The notes beneath the pieces were generated by a model that ran no database searches, was not told the DNA's origin, and saw only the letters and a program-made list of their open reading frames with translations. From Amycolatopsis roodepoortensis (GTDB lineage: Bacteria > Actinomycetota > Actinomycetes > Mycobacteriales > Pseudonocardiaceae), in contig NZ_JADBEJ010000004.1 in the NCBI RefSeq assembly GCF_014873915.1, forward strand, positions 1,240,001 through 1,304,000: a DNA stretch of 64,000 nucleotides, given 5' to 3'. Shown here piece after piece: positions 8,150 through 45,337 of this stretch (position 1 is its first letter; each line of letters opens with the position of its first letter). A program made the translations under genes and the position numbers.

Positions 8150-9453
8150 GCACCCCGGAGACCACGTTCTGGCAACCCGCCACCGAGACCATGTCGCGGG
8201 ACCGGCTGGCCGCGTGGCAGTGGGTGAAGCTGCGGAAGGCCTTGGAACACGCCAGGACCAACTCGAAGTTCTGGGCGACGCGGATCCCGGACGGCCTCGA
8301 GTCGCTCGCCGACTTCCAAGAGCGGGTTCCCCTGCTGTACAAGAAGGATCTCGTCGCGGCGGAAGCCGTCGACCCGCCGTTCGGCATCCTGCCGTCCACC
8401 GATCCCGTGGCGGGCGTCCGGTTCCATCAGACCAGCGGCACCAGCGGCCACACACCACTGCGCACCTTCGACACCGCGCGGGACTGGGCGTGGGGCGTCG
8501 ACATGTGGTGCGCCGCCTTGCACGCCGCGGGCGTCCGCCCCGGCCAGAAAGGCTGTGTGGCCTTCGGATACGGCCTGTTCATGGGGTTCTGGGGAATGCA
8601 GGACGCGCTGTCCAGGATGGGCTGCACCATCGTGCCCACCGGCTCGATGGATTCCGTCACCCGCGTCCGGTTGATCGTCGACCAGGGGATCGAGGTGCTC
8701 GGCTCCACCCCCACCTACGCGATGCGGCTGCTGGAAACCGCCGCCGAGCTGGGCATCGATCTGGCGACCGAGAGCAAGCTCCGGATCATCGTGACCGGCG
8801 CGGAACCGCGCTCCGCGGCCACGACCCGCACGCTGACCGAGGGGTTCGGCGCGCGGGTGTTCGATTTCGCCGGGATGACCGAACTCGGCACGGTCTTCAT
8901 GTTCGAATGCCCGTCCCGGCCCGGCGCCTGCCACATCATCGAACCCGGTGTCGTCGAAGAGGTGCTCGACCCCGAGACCGGCCGCCCCGCCGGTTACGGG
9001 GAACGCGGCGTGCGCGTGATGACCGGTCTCGGCCGGGAAGGGATCCAGGTCTTCCGCTACTGGACGGACGACGTCGTGGTGAAACGCCCTTGGCACGACT
9101 GCCCGTGCGGTCGCACCTGGGACTTCTACGACGGCGGGATCCTCGGCCGCAGCGACGACATGCGCAAGATCCGCGGGATCTCGGTGACCCCGGTCCTCGT
9201 CGAGGACGTCGTGCGCGGTTTCGACGCGGTGGCGGAGTTCCAGACGGTGCTCCGCACGGACGGCGGTCTCGACAAGATGGTGCTGCGGATCGAGCCCCGC
9301 CCCGGCGCCGACCAGGCGGCCCTCGCCGCCGGAGTCCGCGACGCGGTCAAACGACTGATCGGACTGCAACCGGAAGTCCGGCTCGCCGCACCGGGCGAGC
9401 TCCCCCGATTCGAGGCGAAGGCGGCGAGATTCCATGACGAACGCGACCGGTGA
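8146..9453 (+). CDS. PaaK-type aryl-CoA ligase
   Basis: A 435-aa member of the phenylacetate-CoA ligase branch of adenylating enzymes. The nucleotide-binding P-loop is TSGTSGHTPL, an aromatic pocket segment AFGYGLFMGFWG follows, FAGMTELG matches the AMP-binding aromatic/Glu motif, and the C-terminal HDCPCGRTW plus GRSDDM hinge is typical of PaaK. It should activate an aryl acid with ATP and pass it to CoA or to a carrier. Coupled by ATGA to the flavoprotein before it, it probably acts on anthranilate or a hydroxylated/methoxylated form. Why the operon needs two ligases is unclear; one may be for loading the PKS. Confidence 0.87.
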   Translation: MSTPETTFWQPATETMSRDRLAAWQWVKLRKALEHARTNSKFWATRIPDGLESLADFQERVPLLYKKDLVAAEAVDPPFGILPSTDPVAGVRFHQTSGTSGHTPLRTFDTARDWAWGVDMWCAALHAAGVRPGQKGCVAFGYGLFMGFWGMQDALSRMGCTIVPTGSMDSVTRVRLIVDQGIEVLGSTPTYAMRLLETAAELGIDLATESKLRIIVTGAEPRSAATTRTLTEGFGARVFDFAGMTELGTVFMFECPSRPGACHIIEPGVVEEVLDPETGRPAGYGERGVRVMTGLGREGIQVFRYWTDDVVVKRPWHDCPCGRTWDFYDGGILGRSDDMRKIRGISVTPVLVEDVVRGFDAVAEFQTVLRTDGGLDKMVLRIEPRPGADQAALAAGVRDAVKRLIGLQPEVRLAAPGELPRFEAKAARFHDERDR

Positions 9454-9670
9454 ACTCAGCGCCGAACACCGGCACGCGCTGATCGACACGTACCTGACCC
9501 TGCACGAACTCGCCACCGGCTGCGCCGTCCCCTCGGTGCGGGCGGCGGCGAGGGCGGCCGTCGCCGAGGTCCACGCCGCGCTCGACGGGCAGGCGATCGA
9601 TTTCGAGTTCTATTCGCATCGATGGGTACCCGCTGATCCGACCGAGGGAGTACAGAAACGATGTCCCTGA
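9434..9670 (+). CDS. Small hypothetical protein between the two ligases
   Basis: A 78-aa ORF that overlaps the PaaK-type gene by 20 bp and the next ligase by 10 bp, a layout that suggests it is really translated. The sequence is mostly helical (HALIDTYLTLHELATG, then an Ala-rich helix) and ends with YSHRWVPADP. No metal, nucleotide or carrier motif is visible; there is no DSL-type phosphopantetheine serine, so it is not an ACP. Possibly an accessory subunit of one of the ligases or of the flavoprotein. Function unknown. Confidence 0.65.
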   Translation: MTNATGELSAEHRHALIDTYLTLHELATGCAVPSVRAAARAAVAEVHAALDGQAIDFEFYSHRWVPADPTEGVQKRCP

Positions 9671-11181
9671 CCGGCTCCGACCAGAGCTTCAACGTCGCCG
9701 AACGCTTCCTCGACGGGCAGGACGGGCGACGGACGGCTCTGCTCACCCAGGACGGCCCGACGAGCTACGACGAACTCCGGGCACAGGTGAACCGGGCGGG
9801 CAACGCCCTGCGCGCGCTCGGGGCGGGCCGGGGCGACCGGGTCCTGATCGCCTTGCGCGACGGGGTGGAGTACGTGGCGACCTGGTTCGCGGCGCAGCGG
9901 ATCGGCGCCGTCACCGTCGAGGTGTACAACTTCCTCGGCACCGGCGATTACCGCTACTACCTGGACTACCTGAAGCCGAAGGTGGTGGTCGCCGACGTCG
10001 GCACGGCGCCGAAGCTGCGGGAGGCCGGGGCGCGGGAGATCGTCGTCGTCGGCGCGGAGCCGGGCGAACTCGCGCCGGGGGAACACCATTTCGAGACGCT
10101 CGTGGCGAAGCTGCCCCCGGTGCTGGACGCCGTGCACGTCGACGGCGACGACGAGGCGATCTGGAAACTCACCAGTGGGAGCACGGGGAAACCGAAGGCC
10201 TGCCGGCTCACCGCCCGCAGCCCGTGGCTGAGCTTCCAGTGGTACGCGCGCACGGCGCTCGGCATCAGCGAGGACGACGTCGTGCTGCCGGTGCCGAAGC
10301 TGTTCTTCGGTTACGCGAGGGATCTCGTGGCGCTCTTCCCGCTCGGGGTCGGCGGGACCGGGATCCTGTTCCCGGAACGGTCCACCGCGGACACGATCTT
10401 CGACCTCGTCGAGCGGTACCGCCCGACGATCCTGGTCAACGTGCCCACCATGATGAAGGCGATGCTCGAGCATCCCGGCGCCGGCGGCAAGGATCTGAGC
10501 AGCCTGCGGTTCGTCACCTCGGCGGGCGAGCATCTGCCGCCCGATCTGCACCGGCGGTGGCTGGACACCTTCGGGGTCGAGGTCATCGACGGCATCGGCT
10601 CTTCGGAGGCCTATCACGGCTACATCACCAACCGGCCGGGCGAATCCCGGGTCGGCACGCTCGGCAAGGTCGTGCCCGGCTACCGGGCGCGGGTCGTCGA
10701 CGACGGCGGGAAGGCCCTGCCCGACGGCGAGGTCGGCGTGTTGGAGGTGTCCGGCGAGCCGGTGGCGCTCGGCTATTACCGGTCGCCGGAGAAGTCGGCG
10801 GCCACCTTCCCCGCCGAGCACACCGTCCGGTCGGGTGACCTGTTCACCCGCGACGAGGACGGGTACTTCCACTACCGGGGACGGGCCGACGACCTGCTCA
10901 AGGTCGGCGGGGTGTGGGTGGCCCCGGTCGAGATCGAGAACTGTCTCGCGACGCATCCGGCGGTCGAAGCGTGCGCCGTCGTCGGCTACGAGGACGGCGG
11001 GCTCACCCGAAGCCGCGCGTACGTGGTCGTATCCGACCCTGTCGAAGCGGCCGAATTGCAGCGGTACGTGCGGGAACGGCTGGCGCCGTACAAGTACCCG
11101 CGCGACATCCGCTTCGTCGACGCCCTTCCCGAAACGCCTTCCGGGAAGGTGGACCGGGGCCGGCTGCGCGACGCCGCCTGA
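9661..11181 (+). CDS. Benzoate-CoA-ligase-type aryl-CoA synthetase
   Basis: A 506-aa ANL-superfamily enzyme. Motifs in order: A3 P-loop KLTSGSTGKPKAC, A5 region GIGSSEAYHGY, YRGRADDLLKVGGVWVAPVEIE (A7/A8 hinge of the benzoate:CoA ligase branch), and the A10 lysine in TPSGKVDRG. These ligases make aryl-CoA from benzoate, anthranilate or aminobenzoates. In this operon anthranilate or its modified form is the obvious candidate. It is the last gene before a strong terminator. Together with the PaaK-like enzyme it gives two phylogenetically different ligases for apparently similar acids. Confidence 0.88.
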   Translation: MSLTGSDQSFNVAERFLDGQDGRRTALLTQDGPTSYDELRAQVNRAGNALRALGAGRGDRVLIALRDGVEYVATWFAAQRIGAVTVEVYNFLGTGDYRYYLDYLKPKVVVADVGTAPKLREAGAREIVVVGAEPGELAPGEHHFETLVAKLPPVLDAVHVDGDDEAIWKLTSGSTGKPKACRLTARSPWLSFQWYARTALGISEDDVVLPVPKLFFGYARDLVALFPLGVGGTGILFPERSTADTIFDLVERYRPTILVNVPTMMKAMLEHPGAGGKDLSSLRFVTSAGEHLPPDLHRRWLDTFGVEVIDGIGSSEAYHGYITNRPGESRVGTLGKVVPGYRARVVDDGGKALPDGEVGVLEVSGEPVALGYYRSPEKSAATFPAEHTVRSGDLFTRDEDGYFHYRGRADDLLKVGGVWVAPVEIENCLATHPAVEACAVVGYEDGGLTRSRAYVVVSDPVEAAELQRYVRERLAPYKYPRDIRFVDALPETPSGKVDRGRLRDAA

Positions 11182-11183
11182 GC

Positions 11184-11210
11184 CGAAGGGGACTTCCCCG
11201 CGTCTCACGC
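11184..11210. repeat. Half of a terminator-type hairpin repeat
   Basis: This stretch contains GAAGGGGACTTCCCC and then CGCGTCTCACGC. The last 12 bases (11199-11210) are identical to 35733-35744, where they form the top of a complete hairpin. Here the matching right arm is absent and another complete hairpin starts at once. It looks like a broken member of the same repeat family. Confidence 0.5.
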
Positions 11211-11212
11211 CA

Positions 11213-11257
11213 CGAAAGGGCCCTTCACCGCATCCCATGCGGTGAAGGGCCCTTTCG
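11213..11257. terminator. Bidirectional terminator, perfect 21-bp stem
   Basis: The arm 11213-11233 is exactly complementary to 11237-11257 with a 3-base loop. Stem core GGGCCCTTCACCGCAT. It lies between the convergent ends of the aromatic operon (11181) and the last PKS gene (11266), so it can end transcription from both sides. There is no long T-run, as is common in high-GC actinomycetes. Confidence 0.85.
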
Positions 11258-11265
11258 TCCGTTCG

Positions 11266-14200
11266 TCAGCGATCCCCGAAGAGCTCCGTCAGCCAGTCGT
11301 GCAGCGCGGCCGCCGCCGCGTCCGCGTGCTCGGTGAGCAGCGTGTAGTGGTTGCCGGGCAGATCGACGGTCCGCGCGCCGAGCGCGTCCGGGAACTGTTC
11401 GTCCGCGGTGAAGGCCGGCAGCCCCGGCAGGGATTCCGCGGCCCGCAGATGCAGGGTCGGCGTGCGGATCGGGACGGGCTCCCAGGTGTCGAACAGCGTG
11501 ACGTACCGGCCCATCGCGCCGAGCTGGCTCGCCATCGAACCGGTTTTCCCGCCACCGAAGAGTTCCTGCCGCCCGGCCTGCTCGCGCATGAACCGCCCGC
11601 GTACCTCGTTCCGGTCCGAAGCGGGCAGGTAGATGTCCACGAGCACGACGGCGTCGGCGGGGCGGCCCTCCGCCTCCAGATACTCCGCGAAGGCCCGCGC
11701 GACCCAGCCGCCCGCCGAGTAACCGACCAGCACCAGCGGCCCGGTGCCGACATGTTCGTCGAGCGCGCGGCGCTGCGCTTCGAACAGGCTGGGCAGGTCG
11801 GGCGGCAGCGGCTGGCCGTCGGTGAACCCCGGCGGCCACATCGTCCACATGTCGCGTGGCCGTGGCATCGCGGGAGCGATGAACGAATACGCGGCGTCGG
11901 TGATCGGCGAGACCGGCGGCACCGCGCAGACCAGCGCGGGACCGCCCGAACCGACGGCCAGCCGCGAGATCCCCACCAGGGCGGCCGTGTCCGTCTCTTC
12001 GTCGAACGAAGCCCGCAGCAGTCCGGCCATCCTGGCCAGGCCCATCGCGTCGTGCGGTCGTCCCTGCCCGACTCCCCGCAGGTAAAGCGAAACCAGACTG
12101 TCCGAATCGGATTCGTCCGATGTGGACACAGCGGATCCGCTCTCGGGCACCTCGTCCGACAGGAACTCCGCCAGCTCCTCGACCGTCGGATAGTTGAGCA
12201 CGTCGGTCAGCTGGAGGTCGACGCCGGTCGCGGCCGCGAGCCGGTTGCGCAACTCCACGGCGGTGAGCGATTCGAAACCGAGGTCGCGGAAGGTGTCGTC
12301 CAGCGGGACCTCACGCCCCCGCGGGTACTTCAGCACCGCGGCGACATGTCCGCGGACCAGCCGGACCAGCCGTTCCCGCCGCTCTTCCGGTGACAGCGCG
12401 GCCAGGCCGGTGTCCGGTTCGGCGTGCTCCTCCCCGGCCGTGCCGTCCCCGAACTCGGGCAGGACCGGATCGAGCCAGTACCGGTCACGCTGGAACCGGT
12501 AGGGCGGCAGATCCACCCGGCTCGCCCCGCTGCCCTCGAAAACGACCCGCCAGTCCACCTCGACCCCGGCGACGTGGGCTTCGGCGAGGGCGCGCAGGAA
12601 GCGGTCCGGACCGCCTTCGCCACGTTGCAGCGTCCCGAGCACGGAGGCGGTCGCGCCGCTCGTGTCCAGGGTCTCGCGCATCGCGCCGGCGAGCACCGGA
12701 TGCGGGCTCACTTCGAGCAGCACCCGGTGACCGTCGCGCAGCAGCGCGGTGGTCACCTCGTCGAACCGGACCGTTTCCCGCAGGCTTCGGTACCAGTACC
12801 CGGCGTCCAGCGGTTCGCCGTCGAGCCACCGGCCCGTCCGGCCGGAGACGAACGGCAGCACCGGGTCGGCGGGCACCAGCGGCGCCAGTTCGTGCAGGAC
12901 GGTGTCCCTGATCCGCTCGACATGAGCCGAATGCGACGCGTAGTCGACCGGGACGCGACGCGCTCGCACGCCTCGCTCCCCGCACTTTTCGAGCAGTTCC
13001 GTCAGCGCGGCCGGGGTACCGGAGACCACTGTGGACAGTGCGCCGTTGACCGCGGCGACAGTGAGCTCGCCCGGTATGCCGTCGATCAGTTCGGCCGTCG
13101 CTTCGGCGCCGAGAGCGACAGAGACCATCCCGCCGGTTCCCGACAGCGCCGTCAGCGCACGGCTGCGCAGCGCGGCCACGCGCATGGCGTCGGAAAGACT
13201 CAGGCCACCGGCGATCCAGGCCGCCGGGATCTCGCCCTGCGAGTGACCGGCGACGGCGGACGGCTCCACACCGTGCTGCCGCCAGAGCCGGGCGAGCGAG
13301 ATCATCACGGCCGCCAGCACGGGCTGGACGACGTCGACGCGATCGAGTGACGGCGCGCCCTCGGCCTGGCGCAGGACGTCGACCAGGGACCAGTCGACGA
13401 ACGGCGTCAACGCCTTCTCGCACTCGACGATCTGTTCGGCGAACACCGGTGAAGCGTCGAGCAGGCCCACCGCCATGCCTTGCCATTGCGCGCCCTGGCC
13501 CGGGCAGACGAACACCACACCGGCGTCCGGGATCGCGGTGCCTTCGACCACGAACGGCGACGGTTCCCCAGAGGCGAGCGCCGAAAGGCCGGAGACGAGT
13601 TCCTCGCGATCGGCGCCCAGCACCACCGCGCGGTGCCGGTGATGGGTTCGCGTCGTGGCGAGCGAATACGCGACGTCGGCCGGGTCCGCGTCACCGAGTT
13701 CGTCGAGCAGCTTCTTCGCCTGGGCCGCGACCCCGGCCGCCGTGGCCGCGGAAACCGCCCACGGCAGCAACGGCGGAGGAGCGCCGGCTCCGGCCGCCTC
13801 CGGTGACTCGCCCTGTTCGAGAATGAGATGCGCGTTCGTTCCGCTCATCCCGAACGACGAGACGGCGGCGCGGCGGGGGCGGCCGGTCTCCGGCCAGGGA
13901 ACGGTTTCGGTGGTCAGGCCGATCCCGCCGCCTTCCCAGTCGACGTGCGGCGTGGGGCGGTCGAGATGCGGCAAGGGGGGCACGAGACCGTGACGCATCG
14001 CCATGAGCATCTTGAGCACGCCGGCGATCCCGGCGGCGGCCTGGGTGTGCCCGACGTTGGCCTTGGCCGAACCGACGAGCACCGGCTCGGCACGGCCCTT
14101 CCCGTAGGTGGCCTGCAGCGCCTGTGCCTCGATCGGATCGCCCAGTTTCGTGCCCGTGCCGTGGGCTTCGAGCACGTCGACGTCCTGTGTGGACAGTCCG

Positions 14201-15183
14201 GCGTCGGCGAGCGCGTCGGTGATCACCCGTTGCTGCGCCCGCCCGCTCGGCGCGGTGAGACCGTTGGAGGCCCCGTCCTGGTTGACCGCCGACCCCTTGA
14301 GCACGGCGAGCACCCGGTGCCCGTTGCGCCGCGCGTCGGAGAGCTTCTCCAGGACGACGATCCCGGCGCCTTCCGCCCAGGCGGTGCCGTCCGCGGCGGC
14401 GGCGAACGGTTTGCACCGGCCATCGGGTGCGAGGCCGCGCTGCTGGGAGAACTCGATGAACCGGATCGGGCTCGGGATGAGCGTCGCGCCCCCGGCGAGC
14501 GCGAGGTCGCATTCGCCGTTCCGCAGCGACCGGGCGGCCAGGTGCATCGCCACGAGCGAGGACGAACACGCCGTGTCCAGGGTGATCGCCGGGCCCTCGA
14601 AACCGAAGAGGTACGACACCCGCCCGGAGGCGACACTGGCCGCGTTGGCGATCGAGACCTGCCCGACCAGATCGACCGGTACCTCCTCCACCCGGGAGGC
14701 GTAATCGCCCCCGACCAGGCCGGTGAACACGCCGGTCCGGCTGCCGCGAAGCCGCGCCGGATCGACCCCGGCGGACTCGAGCGCGTGCCAGGAGACCTCC
14801 AGCAGCAGCCGGTGCTGTGGGTCCATCACCAGCGCTTCCCGCGGCGAGACGCCGAAGAATCCCGCGTCGAACTCCGTCGCCGATTCGATGAACCCGCCGT
14901 GGCGGACATACGACTTCCCCGGCGCCTCGGGGTCGGGATCGTAGATCTCCGCCAGGTTCCAGCCTCGATCGGCGGGGAACTCCGAGATCAGGTCCCGTCC
15001 CTCGACGAACACCTCCCACAGCTGTTCGACCGATTCGACCCCGCCCGGGAACCGGCAGCCGGCGCCCACGATCACCACCGGGTCGGCCTCGGCGTTTTCA
15101 AGGCGGCTCAACCGCTTCTTGGTCTCGTACAGCTCCGCCGTCACCCGCTTGAAGTACTCGACGAGCTTCGGGTCATCGGACAT
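11266..15183 (-). CDS. Type I PKS, final module: docking-KS-AT-ACP-TE
   Basis: A 1305-aa protein. A short N-terminal coiled-coil docking segment ([19 protein letters not shown]) precedes the KS (active Cys206, TACSSS). The AT has Ser648 (GHSQGE) and a YASH motif, both pointing to methylmalonyl-CoA. There is no KR, DH or ER. The ACP carries Ser972 in GFESLT, with Glu in place of the usual Asp. The thioesterase has Ser1156 in GYSAGG and a later His (NHYTLL). This module adds a methyl-branched beta-keto unit, and the TE releases the chain by hydrolysis or cyclisation. It follows the PKS at 15186-21689 by only 2 bp, and KS-N/ACP-C docking helices suggest it is the next protein in line. Confidence 0.95.
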
Positions 15184-35100: not shown

Positions 35101-35179
35101 CGACTCGGCGTCGGAAGACGAACTGTTCGACCTCATCGACGACGTCCTCGCCTTCGACGACGACGCGTCAGCCGCCTGA
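23183..35179 (+). CDS. Type I PKS: loading module plus two extension modules
   Basis: A 3998-aa protein; ATG 23183 follows CGGAG and longer frames lack homology. Loading: KSQ with Gln173 for Cys (DSGQSSS), AT remnant (residues about 460-700) with no GQGSQ, GEGIGG in place of GHSxGE (Gly585 for Ser) and no C-terminal half, then ACP Ser730. Module 1: KS Cys963; AT Ser1406 (GHSQGE, YASH at 1506, methylmalonyl); DH His1711 and Asp1872; KR with LDD (2216) and Tyr2273; ACP Ser2432. Module 2: KS Cys2666; AT Ser3108 (GHSVGE, HAFH at 3207, malonyl); KR with LDD (3663) and Tyr3720; ACP Ser3881. The acidic C-terminal docking tail fits hand-over to the next protein. Confidence 0.96.
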
Positions 35180-38297: not shown

Positions 38298-39680
38298 TCA
38301 GGTCACCCGGCTCCGCAGTGCCAGCAGGCAGGCGGGAACGGCCACGAGGGTGACGAACCCGAAGACCACGCCGTAGACCAGCGCACCGGGGTACTCGACG
38401 GCCGTCCCGGCGTTGAACAGCGCCCCCGCCGCGCCGATCAGCACCACGCTCCCGAGGCCCTGCGACACCTGCATGGCGGCCGAGTACCGGCCTTGGTCCT
38501 CCGGCGGGCAGTGGTCGAAGGCGAGCACCGTCAAGCTCGGCATCACGAGCCCCATCCCGAATCCGGCGACGATCAGCGCGGCGCTCGCGGTCAGCGGCGG
38601 CACGAACCCGAACACGCCGAAGATCGCGATCGCGCTCGATCCGGCGATCACCACCGAACCGAGCAGCACCAGCCGGTGCCGGGGCACCTCGGCCCACGGA
38701 TGCCCCTGCAGCCAGGCCGCGCCCGCCCACAGCAGCGTCGCCCCGGTGAAGGAGACACCGGCGACGGTCACCGAGATCTGCCGCTGGTTGATCAGCATCA
38801 GCGGGATGTAGGACTCCAGCGTGAAGTAGATGCCCGCGCTGAGCCCCCGCAGCAGGATCGCGGCGGGGATGCCCCTGGCCGCGCGGAGCGTCCCTTCCGG
38901 CAGCAGCCGCGGCACGCTGATCACCAGCGCGACGACGCCGACGGCGGCGAACGCGAGATGTGTCAGGTCCAATCCGGACGCGCCGAAGTGCAGGATCCCC
39001 GCCGCCACCGCGACGATCGCCGCGGCCCGCACGAGACCCGGCGGCGTCGCGCGTTCGTCGTCGGCCACCGGGCTGAGCCGCCGCAGGAAACCGAGCGGGA
39101 TCAGGGAAGCGACCGAGACCAGGATCGCCAGCCCGAAGAACACCCACCGCCACGACAGCAGCTCGGTGACCGTCCCGGCGATCGCCGGGCCGATCATCGA
39201 CGGCACGATCCAGCAGGTGCTCATCAGCGAGAGCGCCTTCGGCCGCAGCTTCGGCGGATACGACTGCGCGATGGTGACGTTGAGCCCGACGACCACGACA
39301 CTGCTCGCGAAACCCTGCACGCAGCGGCCGGCGATCAGCTGCCACATCGTGGTCGCGGTCCCCGCCACCAGCAGCCCGGCAAGGAACAGGCCCAGTCCGA
39401 GTATCAGCAGCAGCCGGGGCCCGCGTTTGTCGGCGATCTCGCCCGCCAGCACGCTGCCGAACAGGCTCATCGTGACGAACCCGCCCAGCGCCAGCGCGTA
39501 CACGTGGAGCCCGTCGAGCTGGCCGACCGCCACCGGCAGGGTGGTGACCAGCGCCAGCGCGGCGAACCCTTCGAGGAACATCACGCAGGCGAAGCCGATC
39601 GTGCTCGCCCGGTACTCCCTGGAGAAGATGCCCACCTTCGACGGTGTGACAGTCTCCTCCGCCAAAGGCGCCGCGGTCAT
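38298..39680 (-). CDS. MFS drug-type exporter
   Basis: A 460-aa major facilitator protein with 12-14 predicted membrane segments. The loop GEIADKRGPRLLLILGL is the family motif A between segments 2 and 3, and GLNVTIAQSYPPKLRPKALSL resembles the conserved loop of DHA-type transporters. ATG 39680 overlaps the stop of the 48-aa ORF (ATGA), which decides the start over a longer frame running upstream. It most likely exports the product of the YcaO-TfuA operon and so may give self-resistance. Confidence 0.9.
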   Translation of the reverse strand: MTAAPLAEETVTPSKVGIFSREYRASTIGFACVMFLEGFAALALVTTLPVAVGQLDGLHVYALALGGFVTMSLFGSVLAGEIADKRGPRLLLILGLGLFLAGLLVAGTATTMWQLIAGRCVQGFASSVVVVGLNVTIAQSYPPKLRPKALSLMSTCWIVPSMIGPAIAGTVTELLSWRWVFFGLAILVSVASLIPLGFLRRLSPVADDERATPPGLVRAAAIVAVAAGILHFGASGLDLTHLAFAAVGVVALVISVPRLLPEGTLRAARGIPAAILLRGLSAGIYFTLESYIPLMLINQRQISVTVAGVSFTGATLLWAGAAWLQGHPWAEVPRHRLVLLGSVVIAGSSAIAIFGVFGFVPPLTASAALIVAGFGMGLVMPSLTVLAFDHCPPEDQGRYSAAMQVSQGLGSVVLIGAAGALFNAGTAVEYPGALVYGVVFGFVTLVAVPACLLALRSRVT

Positions 39681-39823
39681 TCGATCGAGGTCATGATCGT
39701 CATGGTCAGGGATTCCAGCGTGCCCTGGACGCCGTCGGACGACGTCCGCACGGCCTCCAGGAACCGTTCCAGCTGGTCGGGGCTGAACCCGGCCAGCGGG
39801 GCGAGTGACGGGTCGATGTTCAC
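39677..39823 (-). CDS. 48-aa ORF between TfuA and exporter, candidate RiPP precursor
   Basis: A GTG-started ORF of 48 codons overlapping TfuA by GTGA (39820-39823) and the MFS gene by ATGA (39677-39680). The N-terminal part (IDPSLAPLAGFSPDQLERFL) looks like an amphipathic helical leader, followed by EAVRTSSDGVQGTLESL. The C-terminus TMTIMTSIE is rich in Thr, Met and Ile. It lacks Cys, so it is not a thioviridamide-type core with an AviCys ring. YcaO/TfuA pairs modify peptide backbones, and a precursor is expected nearby; this is the only small coupled ORF in the operon. It could instead be a regulatory or structural small protein. Its coding status rests on the exact couplings. Confidence 0.6.
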   Translation of the reverse strand: MNIDPSLAPLAGFSPDQLERFLEAVRTSSDGVQGTLESLTMTIMTSIE

Positions 39824-40515
39824 AGCGCACCTCGGACGTCGACGGATCTGATCTGCGGTTCGGTGGCCGGGTCGAGGAAGTCCCGCATCGCCGCGAGGAG
39901 CAGCAGGGCGTCCTCGCGTTTCGTGTCGGGGGCCCCGCCGGCGAAGAAGGCGGCGATCCTGGCGTGCTCGTCCTCCGGGATCTCCCGGCGCAGCAGCATG
40001 AGCACGGTCCGGTTGACCCGCTGCGGGAAGTACAGCTCCTTGGCGATCTCGAGGAACCGCTCGCCCGTCCCGGGGGCGAACGCGCCCTGCTCGATACCGG
40101 CGGCGATGGCGAACCGCATGTTCACCATCGGCTCCGACAACGCCGAGAGGTTCTCCTCGTCGTAGGTGACGGCGACCTCGTCGTCGGCATCGATCCGCCC
40201 GGAGAAGTACTCCTCGTAGATCTTGCCGACGCCGACCATGCCGAACGGCGAGCATTCCGCCGCGCGCAAGGCGCCCATGCTCGACGAACCGAACATCGTG
40301 ACACCGCGGTCCATCGCTTCGAGCACCTCCTTCGGCGAGACGCACAGGCTCTGCAGGAAGCGGCCGTCGACGATGCCGATGGCCTCCGGCGGCTCCGGCC
40401 TGGCCAGCAGTCCGGCGAGGTCGCCCCGTTTGACCGGCGGCAGGAACTCGACGTCGAGTTCGGCCGAAGCCGATTCGATGTCGATGCTCGGGCCGATGAA
40501 AACCACTGCGCGCAT
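39820..40515 (-). CDS. TfuA-like protein
   Basis: A 231-aa protein with the TfuA core: FIGPSIDIESA at the N-terminus, VDGRFLQSLCVSPKEVLEAM, and the diagnostic FGSSSMGALRAAECSPFGM. TfuA proteins work with YcaO enzymes in thioamide formation, in natural products such as thioviridamide and in methyl-CoM reductase maturation, where they are thought to deliver or activate the sulfur donor. It starts 9 bp after YcaO, and its stop overlaps the 48-aa ORF. Length is normal for the family. Confidence 0.93.
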   Translation of the reverse strand: MRAVVFIGPSIDIESASAELDVEFLPPVKRGDLAGLLARPEPPEAIGIVDGRFLQSLCVSPKEVLEAMDRGVTMFGSSSMGALRAAECSPFGMVGVGKIYEEYFSGRIDADDEVAVTYDEENLSALSEPMVNMRFAIAAGIEQGAFAPGTGERFLEIAKELYFPQRVNRTVLMLLRREIPEDEHARIAAFFAGGAPDTKREDALLLLAAMRDFLDPATEPQIRSVDVRGAL

Positions 40516-40524
40516 GACGATCTC

Positions 40525-41877
40525 CTAGGCGGGCTTGGAAAGTTCGGCGGCCCGGATCCGGGCGGAGAGTTCCAGCAGCGTGTCGTTCCAGACCGCGGCG
40601 CCACGCGGGCCGATCTTGCAGTGGTCGACGGCCCACGATTCGAGCCGCGGCACGATCACCCGCACGACGCTCACCGGGATCCCCGGCGGCGAGAGGTCGA
40701 CGACGAGCGCGCGGTCGATACCGGCGGCGCGGATCCGGTCCAGGATCAGCTCGATGTCGGTCATCACGTCGTCGGTGGTCCACGACGGGATCTCGTCGAA
40801 CGCGACCTGTTTGCGCATCGGCCGCCAGGCCCACGCGCCCTTGTCGATCGTCGCCGACCGCTGGACGTGGTTCTGGTACTTGGACACGTTCTCGGTCGGG
40901 AGCCGGATGTCCTCGCGCATCGCCTGGATGTCGACGGCGCGACCCTGCGCGCATTCGGTGATGGCGCGGATGAGCGCGACGTTCGCGTCGGGATGCGTGC
41001 CGAATCCGCCGTGGCCCTGCGACGTCGTCGGGCCGAGGTCTTCGGAGGTGGCGGCGAGGAAACTCGGGATCTCCAGATCCGAGGTGATGTGCACGATCCG
41101 CATCTTCAGCCCGGCGTCGTGGAACTTGTCCACGAGGGACTTCGCGAGCGGCGGCAGCGTTTCCAGGTCCACGTGCGGGTGGAGTTCCCTGAGGTAGGAC
41201 GTGATGTGCTCGGGCTGCGGCTCGACGAAGATGCCCTTTTCCAGCACCTGCGCCAGCTGGCTGCTCACGAGTTCCGCGTTGGTCATCGAGTCGCGCTCGA
41301 TCAATTCGGTGAGCGCGTGGCAGATGGCCTCTTCGAGGCTGTTCCCCGACGCCAGGCCATTGGTGGAAAGCACCTTGTAGCAAGGAGGTTCATGGAACTT
41401 CAGCCCGTAGACGGCGGACGCCTGCGGGATGAGGACGGACTCTTCGTTCATCAGGTCGTACGCCTCGACCCACGAGATCGGGAGATCGTCGCGGTAGTGC
41501 GCGGAAAGCTCCGCGTTGTTCTCGCGCGGATCCAGCACCGTGCGGCCCTCGGCGACCAGCTCCTCGTAGGACGCGATGACCCGCGGCCGCACCGGGAGCG
41601 CGGCGGAGAACCGCTCGATCGCCTCCATCGCCGCGGACGTCCTGGCGTCGATGTTCGTCAGGCCTTTGCCGTTGTAGACGGAGATGATGTCGTTGGCGCG
41701 CGGCGCGATGGCGTTGTAGACCGGGATGCCGACCCGGTCGAGCCAGGTGATCTCCGCGACCCGGGTGACCCCGGCGCGCCGCAGATGCGGCTCGATCCGC
41801 GCGTAGGTCTGCTCGGCGGTGAATTCCCGGTGCACCCCGCCACCACCGACCTTCGGAACGCTCTTCCTGAGTTTCAT
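40525..41877 (-). CDS. YcaO-domain ATP-dependent backbone-modifying enzyme
   Basis: A 450-aa YcaO. The ATP/Mg-binding segments are visible: TNIDARTSAAMEAIERFSAA, EEAICHALTELIERD and ALIRAITECAQGRAVDI, with the conserved Glu, Gln and Arg. With TfuA beside it, the expected chemistry is phosphorylation of an amide oxygen and exchange for sulfur (thioamide) rather than azoline formation; no E1-like cyclodehydratase partner or RRE protein is in the window. The C-terminus ends SKPA, without the proline-rich PxPxP tail of classical azoline-forming enzymes. ATG 41877 overlaps the SenB-like stop (ATGA), which fixes the start. Confidence 0.93.
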   Translation of the reverse strand: MKLRKSVPKVGGGGVHREFTAEQTYARIEPHLRRAGVTRVAEITWLDRVGIPVYNAIAPRANDIISVYNGKGLTNIDARTSAAMEAIERFSAALPVRPRVIASYEELVAEGRTVLDPRENNAELSAHYRDDLPISWVEAYDLMNEESVLIPQASAVYGLKFHEPPCYKVLSTNGLASGNSLEEAICHALTELIERDSMTNAELVSSQLAQVLEKGIFVEPQPEHITSYLRELHPHVDLETLPPLAKSLVDKFHDAGLKMRIVHITSDLEIPSFLAATSEDLGPTTSQGHGGFGTHPDANVALIRAITECAQGRAVDIQAMREDIRLPTENVSKYQNHVQRSATIDKGAWAWRPMRKQVAFDEIPSWTTDDVMTDIELILDRIRAAGIDRALVVDLSPPGIPVSVVRVIVPRLESWAVDHCKIGPRGAAVWNDTLLELSARIRAAELSKPA

Positions 41878-42854
41878 CGCACTCCCTCGTATCCGGAGTT
41901 CGCCGGCACCGCTTCGGCGAGCAGTCGTCGCCATGCCTGGGTTTCGCGCTCCGGATCCGCCGAAGCGCGGCGGGCGGCGCACTGCCGCCGTATCCGCGTG
42001 TAGAGCCCGTCGCGGTCGTGCTCGGCGTCGTCGAGCACGGTGGCGAGCGCGGCCGTGTCACCGACGGGGAAGTAGCCGGCGTAGTCCTCACCGAGCAGCC
42101 CGACGGAACCCGGGACGCGGGTGGACACGATCGGGACCCCGGCGGCGAGCGCTTCGGTGACCACGTTCGCCCCGCCCTCGTGCAGCGACGTCAGCACCAG
42201 CAGGCGGCTGCGGGCGAGGACGGCGAGCGCTTCGGGTCGCGGCAGCGGGCCGAGCCAGGTGTAGCGCGGGTTTTCCGCCGACTCGGCACGCAGCCGCTCG
42301 CCGACGTCGTCCTCGCGCACGCCGCCGACATGGGTCACGGTGATCCGCGACGACGACGGCAGCAGGCGCACCGCCTCGCTCAGCCGCAGCGGATCCTTGA
42401 CCGGCCGGGCGTGTGCCAGGAACGCGACCTCGAAGCGGTCCTCCGCCGGTGCCTCGCCCGGAATCGGCGGCATCGACTGGATGATCACCCTGGTACGGCC
42501 GCGAAGCCCCAACGGAACCTGGAGAAGTCCTCGCGGCTGAAGGACGACGATCCGCGCGGCTCGTCCGAGCAAGCCCAGGTCGACGCCCCCGGTGACCAGG
42601 TCCGGGTAGAGATCCGTGCCGGTCAGCGCGATCACGACCGGCGTGTCCGGGCAAGCGGCGGAGAAGGCGCGGATCGCGGCCTCGCTTTTGCGCGCGTGCA
42701 AGGCGATGAGCAGGTCGTAGCGCTCGCCGTCGTAGTCCTGGGCGACCCGGACCTCGTGGCCGAGGTTCCGCAGCAGACGCGCCCACCGGCGCGCGGTGAC
42801 GCCGTTGCCGTAGTCGCTGGTTTCGGGGACGGGGCCCGCGACGAGGATCCTCAT
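41874..42854 (-). CDS. SenB-family (TIGR04348-like) glycosyltransferase
   Basis: A 326-aa GT-B protein whose N-terminus matches the SenB pattern: GNGVTARRWARLLRNLGHEV, YDLLIALHARKSEAAIRAF and VVIALTGTDLYPDL. The C-terminal donor site EGGANVVTEALAAGVPI followed by GLLGEDYAGYFPVGD also fits. SenB joins UDP-sugar and selenophosphate to a selenosugar in selenoneine biosynthesis. Its partners SenA and SenC are not present here. In an operon with YcaO-TfuA, which handle sulfur, a C-S bond to a sugar is an attractive guess, but ordinary O- or N-glycosyl transfer is possible. Starts at the ATGA overlap with the preceding gene. Confidence 0.82.
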   Translation of the reverse strand: MRILVAGPVPETSDYGNGVTARRWARLLRNLGHEVRVAQDYDGERYDLLIALHARKSEAAIRAFSAACPDTPVVIALTGTDLYPDLVTGGVDLGLLGRAARIVVLQPRGLLQVPLGLRGRTRVIIQSMPPIPGEAPAEDRFEVAFLAHARPVKDPLRLSEAVRLLPSSSRITVTHVGGVREDDVGERLRAESAENPRYTWLGPLPRPEALAVLARSRLLVLTSLHEGGANVVTEALAAGVPIVSTRVPGSVGLLGEDYAGYFPVGDTAALATVLDDAEHDRDGLYTRIRRQCAARRASADPERETQAWRRLLAEAVPANSGYEGVR

Positions 42855-44482
42855 CGGACCCGGTCCACGTCGTAGGCGAGCCATTTGCCGAAGGCCCGGA
42901 CGGCTTCGTCGGCCGGGACCGTGGCCGTCCAGCCGAGTTCCGCGGCCGCGAGGCCCAGCTTCATCACGCGCGTGTCCGACGGGGCGGTGACGACTTCGGT
43001 CGGCACGGCGCGAACCGCGGCGCAGACGACCTTCGCCAGTTCATTCCCGGTGAGGGTCGCCGTCGCGATGTCGTACACCGGCGCGACCGGTCCGCCGGTC
43101 AGCACCGCGTCGATCGCGCTCGCCATGTCGCGTACGTCGGTGAACTGGTGGACGCGGCCGGGGTCGACCGGCAGCGGCCGCCGGGTCCATGCCAGCTCGA
43201 TCCAGTGCGCCACCAGGGTTTCCGTCGAGGTATGCGGCCCGATCGGCGTCGCGAACCGCAGGACGTGCTCACGCGATCCGGCGTCGACGATCGCGCAGAA
43301 GACGTCGCCGGGATCCGCCACGTCGCCGAGGTGCACGCGCCTTGTCCCCTCGGCGGCCCTCGCGCTGTCGACGACGTCGTGGCCGAGTTCGGTCAGCAGT
43401 CCGGAAAGGTGCTCGGCGAGCGGGCCGCCAGGGCCGGTGATCGCGATCCGGATCCCGGTCCCCCGGCGTGGCCGCCGGGGCCTGCCCGCTCGATCACGCC
43501 CCGCCGCGAAACCCCATACGGCGACGTCGTGGTGCGAGGGTGTGATCGCCTCGATCTCGGACGCCAGCAGCCGATCGCAGAGACCGCCCGGGCCGATGGT
43601 CGCCAGCGCCTGGTCCAGCACCGCACCACTGTGTTCCACAGTGGACAGTCCCATGGCGAACGCGGTCAGCCAGGTCTGCCAGGCGGCTTCGGACAGGTCC
43701 GAGCCGCGTTCGAACCCGGTTCTGCACTCCTGCGGCGAAATCCCCGATCGCCGCAGGAGCCGTTCTGTTCCGAGGTACTCCCAGTACCCGTCGCCGCGTA
43801 CGGCGCATTCGGAAGTCAGGTGTTTGTGGAAGGGGATCACTTCGTGCTCGGCGAGCGCGTCACCGGCCGTCGCGGGGGCGACCGCGGAGAAACACGCGGA
43901 ACGCCGCAGACCGTGTGCGTCGTTGCCGGCGACACTGGGCAGGCCGGAATGTTCGACGGTGTTCGGCACCGCGATGCGGATCGGTGTCCCCACTGCCTTG
44001 AGATAGCGGAACATCAGCACGTCGCACGGCCACCGGTCACCGTCGCGGACCGCGTATCCGGCGTAACCGCGCGCGATCTCGGCCGGCAGCATCAACGCGA
44101 CGCAGGGCGCGTACTCGTTGACCGCCGTCGCCCAGTCCGCACCGGCGGCCGCGGCCATCCGCACGGCCGCGCCGTTGCGCGAGTTCCAGTTGGCGTAGAA
44201 CGCGATCGCGTCGCCGGGCAGCCGCCCGGCCGCCTTCCGCGCGTGCTCGAAGAAGCCGTCGGCGAGCCGGACGTCGTCCTGCAGGACGAGAAAGTGGGTC
44301 GCGTCGTCGGGAACGCCGCTCCAGGCCAGTCTCGTGGTGCGCGCGGCCGTCGGCGGCCCGTCCGGATCGGGGTCCAGGACGACCCGCGTCGCACCGGCGG
44401 GATCGAGTCGCGCGAGTGCTTCCGCCTCTGCCCGGCGCCGGGGGTGCGCCATGACGGCGCCGTGCACCCGTATCTCGGTCAT
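42851..44482 (-). CDS. Glycosyltransferase-like / NAD-epimerase-like fusion
   Basis: A 543-aa two-domain protein. Residues 1 to about 320 look like a GT-A fold glycosyltransferase: THFLVLQDDVRLADGFFEHA supplies an acidic DD pair at the end of a beta strand, and FYANWNSRNGAAVRMA and PCVALMLPAEIARGYAGYA follow. From about residue 343, IRIAITGPGGPLAEHLSGLL is a Rossmann start, and VHQFTDVRDMASAIDAVLTGG resembles the C-terminal part of extended SDR epimerases; the YxxxK catalytic pair is not evident, so the second half may only bind a nucleotide sugar. First gene of the minus-strand operon. Substrate unknown. Confidence 0.7.
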   Translation of the reverse strand: MTEIRVHGAVMAHPRRRAEAEALARLDPAGATRVVLDPDPDGPPTAARTTRLAWSGVPDDATHFLVLQDDVRLADGFFEHARKAAGRLPGDAIAFYANWNSRNGAAVRMAAAAGADWATAVNEYAPCVALMLPAEIARGYAGYAVRDGDRWPCDVLMFRYLKAVGTPIRIAVPNTVEHSGLPSVAGNDAHGLRRSACFSAVAPATAGDALAEHEVIPFHKHLTSECAVRGDGYWEYLGTERLLRRSGISPQECRTGFERGSDLSEAAWQTWLTAFAMGLSTVEHSGAVLDQALATIGPGGLCDRLLASEIEAITPSHHDVAVWGFAAGRDRAGRPRRPRRGTGIRIAITGPGGPLAEHLSGLLTELGHDVVDSARAAEGTRRVHLGDVADPGDVFCAIVDAGSREHVLRFATPIGPHTSTETLVAHWIELAWTRRPLPVDPGRVHQFTDVRDMASAIDAVLTGGPVAPVYDIATATLTGNELAKVVCAAVRAVPTEVVTAPSDTRVMKLGLAAAELGWTATVPADEAVRAFGKWLAYDVDRVR

Positions 44483-44680
44483 CGACCACCCCTGCCGTCC
44501 ATTTCGAACACCGGCCGAAGTGTGTCACCACCCTTATACCGTCCTCTTCTTCAAGACTGCGAGTGGGACGGAACGGTGAACTTCTCCTCGATTGCGCCTC
44601 TTTTCCGCATGTCCCACGAATGAGATTTTCACGGGTAACGTCGGGAGCAGGCCACGAAACCGAGGAGAGCGGGCGAGAAG
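44483..44680. promoter_or_regulatory. Divergent intergenic region upstream of the YcaO operon
   Basis: 198 bp between the first gene of the minus-strand operon and the plus-strand ArsC-like gene. On the minus strand a TATAAG-like -10 can be read near 44535, about 50 bp from the start codon, but spacing to any -35 is poor. No clear operator. No regulator gene lies in the operon. Confidence 0.35.
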
Positions 44681-45112
44681 ATGACGGATATCCTTTTCGT
44701 GTGCGTGCACAACGCGAGCCGATCGCAGATGGCGGCCGCGTTGCTGAAGCATCACGGATTCGGCCGGGTGACCGTGCGGTCCGCGGGGTGCGACCCGGCG
44801 GAGCGGATCAATCCCTTGGTGGCGGGCGCGCTGGCGGAATGGGACGTCGACATCTCGGGCGAGGTGCCGAGCCGGGTCACCTACGAAGACGTGGCGGCGG
44901 CCGACATCGTCATCACCATGGGCTGCGAGACCTATCCGGTCGCCGAAGGGACAAGATACGTCGAATGGGTCGTCCCCGACCCGGAAACCGAAGGGATCGT
45001 CGGCATCCGGCCGCTACGGGACGACATGGACCGGCGGGTTCGCGAGCTTCTTTCGTCCCTTGTGGACACTCCAGCCCGCGTCCGACCCGCTCTTCTCGGG
45101 AAATCCTCCTGA
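44681..45112 (+). CDS. Low-molecular-weight phosphatase / ArsC-like protein
   Basis: A 143-aa protein of the LMW tyrosine phosphatase-arsenate reductase fold. The N-terminal phosphate loop CVHNASRSQ is the CX5R signature, and a later Asp-Pro (VVPDP) matches the general acid region. The organisation (MGCETYPV, RYVEWVVPDP, IRPLRDDMDRRVRELL) follows actinobacterial mycothiol-dependent ArsC proteins. The second Cys of their MGCGxxCP motif is absent, so thiol-relay arsenate reduction may work differently or be lost. No ars operon genes are near. ATG 44681 is preceded by GAGAGCGGGCGAGAAG. Confidence 0.8.
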   Translation: MTDILFVCVHNASRSQMAAALLKHHGFGRVTVRSAGCDPAERINPLVAGALAEWDVDISGEVPSRVTYEDVAAADIVITMGCETYPVAEGTRYVEWVVPDPETEGIVGIRPLRDDMDRRVRELLSSLVDTPARVRPALLGKSS

Positions 45113-45337
45113 TCAGGCGCACGGTGACCTGGTCGCCTCGTGGTCGTGACCGCCCACGGTGCCGCCGACCTCGACGGCCATTCCGGTACCGGAGAATTCG
45201 GCGAATTCCTGCATGTTCACCCAGGGCAGGCCGCTATTGGAATCAGGAACGACTTCGGCGGTGAAGGTCACGTCGATTTCCCGCGGCGCTTCGCGTCCGC
45301 CATATTCGAGCCTTTCCGATCGGAGGTGAGACGACAC
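45082..45337 (-). pseudogene. Remnant of a DUF1905-like gene
   Basis: The minus-strand frame 45337-45113 begins REIDVTFTAEV, continues PWVNMQEFAEFSGTG and VEVGGTVGGHDHEA, then stops. In the neighbouring frame the expected family end, DQVTVRLIRRIS, follows at once. The pattern fits a gene with an internal deletion of about 40 codons and a frameshift. The DUF1905-type assignment is from sequence style only. It overlaps the 3' end of the ArsC-like gene slightly. Confidence 0.4.

What the first reader, a model, noticed from the sequence alone, without database searches (positions are those of the whole stretch)
41874..44482. SenB-like glycosyltransferase outside selenoneine biosynthesis, in a sulfur-handling operon
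The GT closely follows the SenB pattern (GNGVTARRWARLL, ALHARKS, ALTGTDLY), but SenA and SenC are not present. It lies between YcaO and a GT/epimerase fusion. SenB makes a carbon-selenium bond on a sugar; here it could make a thiosugar as donor for thioamide formation, or a C-S-linked glycoside of the peptide or polyketide.
Basis: partly seen in the sequence, partly recalled or inferred. Interest (0 to 1): 0.8.

Follow-up and report, generated by a model that had tools for sequence, protein, structure and literature searches.

The report
Selenosugar-type enzyme in sulfur-peptide cluster
A few Amycolatopsis bacteria carry a close relative of the enzyme that puts selenium on sugars, wired into a small cluster that probably makes a sulfur-modified peptide, in genomes where the usual selenium-activating enzyme was not found, so it may make a sulfur sugar for that peptide.

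Summary
The 41874-42884(-) product is a SenB (TIGR04348 337 bits, cut-off 300), keeps the mapped active site including the Se-P-cleaving lysine, and branches inside actinobacterial SenBs, apart from ordinary GT4 enzymes.

SenB lies in a ~5.4-kb island (about 39669-45081) found in 8 of 80 Amycolatopsis genomes: fusion protein, SenB, YcaO, TfuA, an unlisted 48-aa precursor peptide (39677-39823) and a divergent ArsC-like gene. The adjacent polyketide genes are not conserved beside it. The peptide looks like a divergent relative of thioviridamide-family precursors; the nearest YcaO-TfuA pairs found sit in thioamitide clusters without SenB.

All 8 island genomes lack detectable SelD and SenA; both other SenB-bearing Amycolatopsis have them near SenB. 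The known selenium supply is absent while selenosugar chemistry is conserved. Best reading: a SenB recruited as thiosugar synthase for a thioamidated peptide (0.45). A role as sulfur donor for YcaO is unlikely, since homologous pairs do without it. Sulfur donor, attachment point and product are unknown. New variant of a known kind.

The parts
44681..45112 (+). divergent ArsC-like low-molecular-weight-phosphatase-family protein (143 aa); the island edge falls in its 3' end
   Evidence: PF01451 63.6 bits, cut-off 23.2; in 8 of 8 islands, 89-93% identical; the A. orientalis copy hits PDB 3T38, arsenate reductase, E 4e-30
42851..44482 (-). FUS: N-terminal ~330 aa of unrecognised family with a QDD motif (GT-A-like by eye only), C-terminal shortened SDR/epimerase-like part
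   Evidence: 8 of 80 Amycolatopsis genomes at 78-100% identity; no Pfam match over cut-off
41874..42854 (-). SenB-family glycosyltransferase (326 aa from the ATG that overlaps the FUS stop; longest ORF reaches 42884)
   Evidence: TIGR04348 337.4 bits vs 300; phmmer to 8K5U/8JJQ/8FBX E about 1e-54; ATGA overlap
40525..41877 (-). YcaO amide-activating enzyme (450 aa)
   Evidence: PF02624 243 bits; starts in an ATGA overlap with the senB stop; 55-66% identical to YcaOs of three thioamitide clusters
39820..40515 (-). TfuA partner of YcaO (231 aa)
   Evidence: PF07812 138 bits; SPKE and GSSSMGALR stretches identical in three thioamitide TfuAs
39677..39823 (-). precursor peptide, 48 aa, GTG start overlapping the TfuA stop (GTGA), stop overlapping the likely MFS start (ATGA)
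   Evidence: same ORF in 8 of 8 islands; last 14 residues identical, 8 of the last 15 codons (stop included) differ only synonymously; NF033415 20.1 bits, below its cut-off of 40
38298..39680 (-). MFS exporter (likely start 39680)
   Evidence: PF07690 144 bits; in 5 of 8 islands, absent at this place in L024, L028 and L149

Best explanation
A small RiPP cluster related to the thioamitides, into which a selenosugar synthase (SenB) was recruited. Shown: SenB family membership, retained catalytic residues, a conserved and mostly overlapping gene order, a conserved precursor-like peptide under purifying selection, a thioamitide-type YcaO-TfuA pair, no detectable SelD or SenA. Inferred: YcaO-TfuA thioamidates the C-terminal core (TLESLTMTIMTSIE). 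SenB uses a UDP-sugar and a phosphate-bound sulfur nucleophile (thiophosphate or an equivalent) to make a 1-thiosugar, by the attack-then-phosphate-cleavage chemistry that SenB uses with selenophosphate. The thiosugar, possibly handled by FUS, decorates the peptide or a product made from it; the MFS protein exports the product.
For: Family. The VpSenB sites that are near-invariant in 61 SenBs with SenA and/or SelD in the locus are kept in 8 of 8 island SenBs; site 61 is K, as in 9 of 12 actinobacterial ones. 52 of 55 columns conserved at 95% or more are kept 8 of 8. Island SenBs are one clade (100/100) within a 16-row set with 8 actinobacterial sen SenBs (98/95), also when rooted on GT4 proteins. 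SelD in 0 of 8 island genomes, 2 of 2 other SenB-bearing genomes of the genus and 43 of the 70 without SenB. SenA only in those 2 of the 10 searched. This YcaO occurs in 8 of 80 genomes, the 8 that have FUS at 78% or more and SenB in the island. Precursor. [quoted passage not shown]
Against: No source of thiophosphate is known in the cluster. Pocket conservation could equally reflect use of phosphate, or of selenophosphate obtained without SelD. The core has no Cys, so no obvious attachment site for a thiosugar. Only 8 species of one genus carry the island, and island and SelD absence may both follow phylogeny. The precursor is below the curated cut-off of its family, and no thioamide or sugar has been seen.
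Confidence: 0.45

Rival explanations
1. SenB glycosylates the peptide directly, on the thioamide sulfur or on Ser/Thr of the core (S- or O-glycosylated thioamide peptide), without a free thiosugar.
For: Conserved coupling of senB to YcaO-TfuA-precursor; core rich in Ser/Thr.
Against: SenB's acceptor pocket is described as narrow, hydrophilic and phosphate-binding (PMC10891094), and its residues are unchanged here; a switch to a peptide acceptor would be expected to change it.
Confidence: 0.17
2. SenB works with phosphate (or an arsenate relative) or another oxygen acceptor and is an ordinary sugar-transferring step.
For: Phosphate was bound in a SenB crystal (PMC10891094); ArsC-like gene in every island.
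Against: Retention of the Se-P-cleaving lysine 158 in 8 of 8; apart from the ordinary GT4 proteins tested.
Confidence: 0.13
3. The thiosugar is a sulfur carrier that feeds YcaO for thioamide formation, parallel to the selenosugar feeding SenA.
For: The selenosugar is the substrate that SenA joins to hercynine in selenoneine biosynthesis (PMC10702425); adjacency to YcaO.
Against: Three related YcaO-TfuA pairs (YcaO 55-66% identical) lie in thioamitide clusters with no SenB in the fetched stretch, and two of those three genomes have no SenB over cut-off at all (G371, G647; the third, G303, has only its island SenB). TfuA releases sulfide from ThiS-COSH (PMC13185837 passage).
Confidence: 0.12
4. 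It does use selenium, with selenophosphate made by a SelD-independent route or taken up, giving a seleno-modified peptide.
For: The active site is that of the actinobacterial sen SenBs.
Against: SelD not found in 8 of 8 carriers; no SenA.
Confidence: 0.1
5. SenB is a bystander that came along with the island and does not act on the peptide.
For: FUS, MFS, nucleotide-sugar dehydrogenase and AsnB relatives occur together in one other actinomycete (L147, G498) without YcaO, TfuA or SenB in the stretch and without SenB over cut-off in the genome.
Against: ATGA overlaps on both sides of senB and strong conservation of its catalytic residues in 8 of 8.
Confidence: 0.03

Closest known systems
SenB, selenosugar synthase of the selenoneine pathway (TIGR04348; PDB 8FBX, 8JJQ, 8K5U)
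   Same: Family score over cut-off, catalytic and UDP-sugar residues, nested among actinobacterial SenBs
   Different: No SenA or SelD found in the genome; coupled to YcaO-TfuA and a precursor peptide
Thioamitides (thioviridamide family RiPPs)
   Same: YcaO 55-66% identical to those of three thioamitide clusters; leader stretch LAGFSPDQLERFLE has counterparts in all three precursors, and QG before the core in two of the three (L171, L172; L173 has QQ)
   Different: Short leader, core without the C-terminal His-Cys; no APH phosphotransferase, HopA1-like, flavoprotein, PhyH or C1 peptidase gene between the island edges; SenB and FUS instead
TfuA-YcaO McrA-glycine thioamidation pair (TIGR03266, NF033432)
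   Same: Best NCBIfam models for this YcaO and TfuA
   Different: Both score below cut-off (285.8 vs 365; 213 vs 235.2)

Membership tests
SenB / TIGR04348 | Model score over the curated cut-off | tested here: met
   337.4 vs 300 bits
SenB / TIGR04348 | UDP-sugar, selenophosphate-pocket and catalytic residues (N20, T23, H58, R61, T83, T85, R155, K158, E231, E239 in VpSenB numbering) | tested here: met
   kept in 8 of 8 island SenBs except site 61, which is K, as in 9 of 12 actinobacterial sen SenBs
SenB / TIGR04348 | EGGAHV motif reported for beta-proteobacterial SenBs | tested here: inconclusive
   here EGGANV; N at this site also in 12 of 12 actinobacterial and 25 of 49 other sen SenBs (motif from PMC10891094)
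SenB / TIGR04348 | Forms a C-Se bond from selenophosphate | not testable with these tools
   needs a biochemical assay
Selenoneine biosynthesis cluster | SenA beside SenB or in the genome | tested here: not met
   best hit 36% in each of 8 island genomes; G254 and G327 have hits of 74-100%
Selenoneine biosynthesis cluster | SelD/SenC in the genome | tested here: not met
   0 of 8 island genomes over cut-off; 45 of 80 in the genus
Thioamitide (thioviridamide family) | YcaO and TfuA | tested here: met
Thioamitide (thioviridamide family) | Precursor over the NF033415 cut-off (40 bits) | tested here: not met
   20.1-20.2 bits; precursors of the three neighbour clusters score 69-124
Thioamitide (thioviridamide family) | C-terminal Cys and dehydratase/decarboxylase genes for the AviMeCys ring | tested here: not met
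   peptide ends TSIE in 8 of 8; the island holds no such gene
Thioamidated RiPP | Peptide carries a thioamide | not testable with these tools
   needs mass spectrometry
Ordinary GT4 glycosyltransferase | Closer to other GT4 proteins than to SenB | tested here: not met
   next NCBIfam model 102 bits against 337 for TIGR04348; 6 GT4 proteins of the same genome fall on the other side of one branch (SH-aLRT 99, long branches)

The most novel reading that the evidence does not exclude
A dedicated thiosugar synthase that evolved from a selenosugar synthase in SelD-less bacteria and supplies S-linked sugars to a thioamidated peptide, with the conserved ArsC-like protein (whose family, from memory, works through a phosphate bound to a cysteine sulfur) replacing SelD by providing the phosphate-bound sulfur.
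Probability: 0.15. Interest if true: 0.9.

Novelty: new variant of a known kind. Interest (0 to 1): 0.7.

Why it matters
In the two SenB papers read in part here the enzyme is described for selenium, with thiophosphate only as a poor substitute. A SenB kept catalytically intact where the known selenium donor apparently cannot be made is a natural test of how the enzyme chooses between sulfur and selenium, and a candidate enzymatic route to thiosugars. It also points to a possible branch of thioamide peptides, not met in my literature searches, whose product can be looked for in named strains (A. orientalis, A. coloradensis, A. regifaucium, A. pittospori, A. oliviviridis).

Tried and rejected
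Polyketide glycoside: not supported, since beside the island in seven other genomes none of the window's PKS, P450 or acyltransferase genes matched (pieces over 100 bases). Whether those genomes hold such genes elsewhere was not searched.

Active epimerase in FUS: the Amycolatopsis proteins lack a stretch that L147 and L148 have in the SDR part; that it would hold the catalytic Ser-Tyr-Lys residues is recalled, not computed. Fold of FUS: the AlphaFold model from 6 close sequences had mean pLDDT 41.6 and was not used; a profile of 12 homologues matched PDB chains only in the SDR part among the 60 shown of 87.

Wider search for SenB: 1 of 394 class genomes, the window's own, and 15 of 297 family genomes, own included, so the comparison rests on one family plus the genome-contig loci.

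SenB loci with no SenA, SelD or YcaO detected: 14 of 87 held loci (5 of the 87 are duplicates of others; several of the 14 are cut by contig ends). Five were looked at by eye; some have ABC-type efflux genes nearby, and none showed YcaO or TfuA.

Promoter/terminator scan of 44400-44760 gave nothing.

Literature. No paper holds SenB with thiosugar. None of the papers listed in the others linked SenB to a RiPP or YcaO, judged by title and start of abstract; lists were cut (20 of 28 shown; 20 of 152, mostly unrelated word matches; 20 of 46). Papers seen: PMC10891094 (outline, parts 1-2 of 6, sections 9 and 10), PMC10702425 (parts 1-2 of 3), PMC8120280, PMC13185837 and PMC8153245 (passages only), PMC6511847 (searched for Amycolatopsis, glycosyl, SenB, sugar: none in its text). 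PMC8120280 reports glycosyltransferases as the most abundant tailoring enzymes in TfuA clusters and one figure with a 'glycosyltransferase family 4 protein', so a GT4 near TfuA is not new in itself; whether that one is a SenB was not checked. The 2022 Nature paper on selenoneine (cited in PMC10702425) was not looked up or read.
Full report
What is in the sequence. The GT of the finding (41874-42884, minus strand) passes the curated model of SenB, TIGR04348, with 337.4 bits against 300. The closest solved proteins are SenBs at E about 1e-54; the first chain outside the family is at E 2e-5. It is the only protein over the cut-off in its genome.

Setting. The window is from an Amycolatopsis (named relatives at 85-88% identity). 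Reading from 44482 leftwards the genes are FUS (42851-44482), senB, ycaO (40525-41877), tfuA (39820-40515), a 48-codon ORF (39677-39823) and an MFS gene (38298-39680). FUS/senB, senB/ycaO, tfuA/small ORF and small ORF/MFS overlap as ATGA or GTGA; ycaO and tfuA are 9 bases apart. A divergent ArsC-like gene (44681-45112) starts 198 bases from FUS.

Island. blastn against five named Amycolatopsis shows one block of 86-90% identity with sharp ends: right end at 45067-45081, left end at 39669-39675 (L024, L028) or 38308 (L025-L027). G303 and G350 give 39675-45081 and 38308-45081. Outside the block the only matches over 100 bases are short pieces at 45130-45307; the fetched flanks on the side of the window's acyltransferase, P450 and PKS genes are 4.8-7.8 kb, enough to reach the PKS end at 35179. 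So the unit is the island, not the polyketide cluster. In four islands (L025, L026, L027, L152) it goes on with a nucleotide-sugar dehydrogenase and a convergent AsnB-like gene (families); these have no relative in the window at E 1e-3. In three (L024, L028, L149) the MFS gene is missing after the small ORF.

The peptide. The small ORF is present in 8 of 8 islands; in L027 its N-terminus differs. Over 46 shared codons (stop included) 20 are identical, 20 differ only synonymously, 6 change the residue; in the last 15 none changes the residue and 8 differ synonymously. It hits NF033415, thioviridamide family RiPP peptide, at 20.1 bits, E 7e-4, under the cut-off of 40. The nearest other YcaOs were found in G371 (66%) and G647 (56%), 3 of 296 class genomes with the window's own counted, and as a second copy in G303 (55%), within 8 of 80 genus genomes, all at E up to 1e-60. 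All three lie with a TfuA in clusters whose precursor is over the NF033415 cut-off, 69-124 bits. Pfam finds APH-like (twice), methyltransferase and C1 peptidase genes in all three, PhyH in L171 and L172, and HopA1-like and flavoprotein genes in L171 (those two were scanned for in L171 only). These gene types, PhyH apart, are described for thiostreptamide S4 (PMC8153245, passages; PhyH recalled). None has SenB or FUS in the fetched stretch, and G371 and G647 have no SenB over cut-off. The island precursor shares their leader stretch but lacks the terminal His-Cys.

Selenium. SelD (TIGR00476) is over cut-off in 45 of 80 Amycolatopsis genomes and in none of the 8 with the island; Fisher p 0.0008 against the other 72, not corrected for kinship. 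SenB is in 10 of 80 genomes: the 8 islands, and G254 and G327, where SenA is next to SenB and SelD next to it or about 3 kb away. The only SenA-like hit in each island genome is 36% identical, like a further copy in G254 and G327 (EgtB by memory). The 10 genomes of other genera with SenB all have SelD (11 of 20 handles over cut-off, G254 included; the 9 without are 6 island species, three of them twice). This YcaO and FUS at 78% or more are in the same 8 genomes. Four further genomes of the genus have a FUS relative of 38-43% and one a shorter match, none with SenB.

Active site. On an alignment of 82 SenBs plus VpSenB (5 duplicate loci and 1 row under 270 aa dropped), G19, N20, T23, H58, T83, T85, D86, Q131, R155, K158, E231 and E239 are kept in 8 of 8 island SenBs. 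Site 61 is K for R, 235 N for H, 22 V for R, 17 D for N; the first three are also the commonest residues in the 12 actinobacterial sen SenBs. Groups were set by tblastn hits to SenA and/or SelD in the locus. Of 55 columns conserved at 95% or more in the 61 sen-context SenBs, 52 are kept in 8 of 8; eight columns set the island clade apart from actinobacterial sen SenBs, among them 63 (A to E), near pocket sites 58 and 61 in sequence. In the tree the island SenBs are one clade (100/100) in a 16-row set with 8 actinobacterial sen SenBs (98/95, midpoint root). Rooted on 6 GT4 proteins of the window's genome (a seventh, L005, had no usable match and was left out) all SenBs stay together (SH-aLRT 99) and the island clade lies inside the actinobacterial sen SenBs; the GT4 branches are very long, so this root is rough.

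How it probably works. Known from the papers: SenB joins the Se of selenophosphate to a UDP-sugar and cleaves Se-P with K158 (PMC10891094); it discriminates 10-20-fold against thiophosphate (PMC10702425). Inferred: without SelD the same machinery is used with a phosphate-bound sulfur, and the thiosugar goes to the thioamidated peptide. YcaO-TfuA pairs make thioamides without SenB (PMC8153245), so SenB is more likely a decorating step than a sulfur supply. FUS may transfer or add a sugar; its N-terminal family is not recognised. Where the dehydrogenase and AsnB are present (4 of 8) the sugar may be a uronic acid or its amide; inference from families only.

Limits. No product, acceptor or sulfur donor is shown. 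Eight related species are few independent observations. The precursor is below the family cut-off; its role rests on position, overlap and constraint.

Noticed in passing
window 44681-45112: The ArsC-like protein keeps the CX5R loop but has Tyr where the nearest solved relative (3T38) has a second Cys after MGC; the same in all 8 islands.
   Followed up: partly
L147 3980-10629: Another actinomycete (G498) has a FUS relative with an MFS, a nucleotide-sugar dehydrogenase (70%) and AsnB (63%), no SenB/YcaO/TfuA in the stretch, and an upstream ORF that reads like a PhyH-type dioxygenase by eye.
   Followed up: partly
L173 7641-15442: G303 carries, besides the island, a separate thioamitide cluster.
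   Followed up: partly
L030, L031, L091 around 9400-14500: SenB genes without SenA or SelD in the locus, with ABC-type efflux genes nearby (by eye), in Pseudomonadota metagenome bins; another possible non-selenoneine setting.
   Followed up: no
G071, G180, G154: SelD reading frames with one in-frame TGA, as expected of a selenocysteine-containing SelD.
   Followed up: no
L174, L175: G327 has two sen clusters with SenA, SenB and SelD; its assembly is listed with 7% contamination.
   Followed up: no
L064: A bin titled Akkermansia muciniphila carries a SenB that groups with Limnohabitans, perhaps a mis-binned contig.
   Followed up: no
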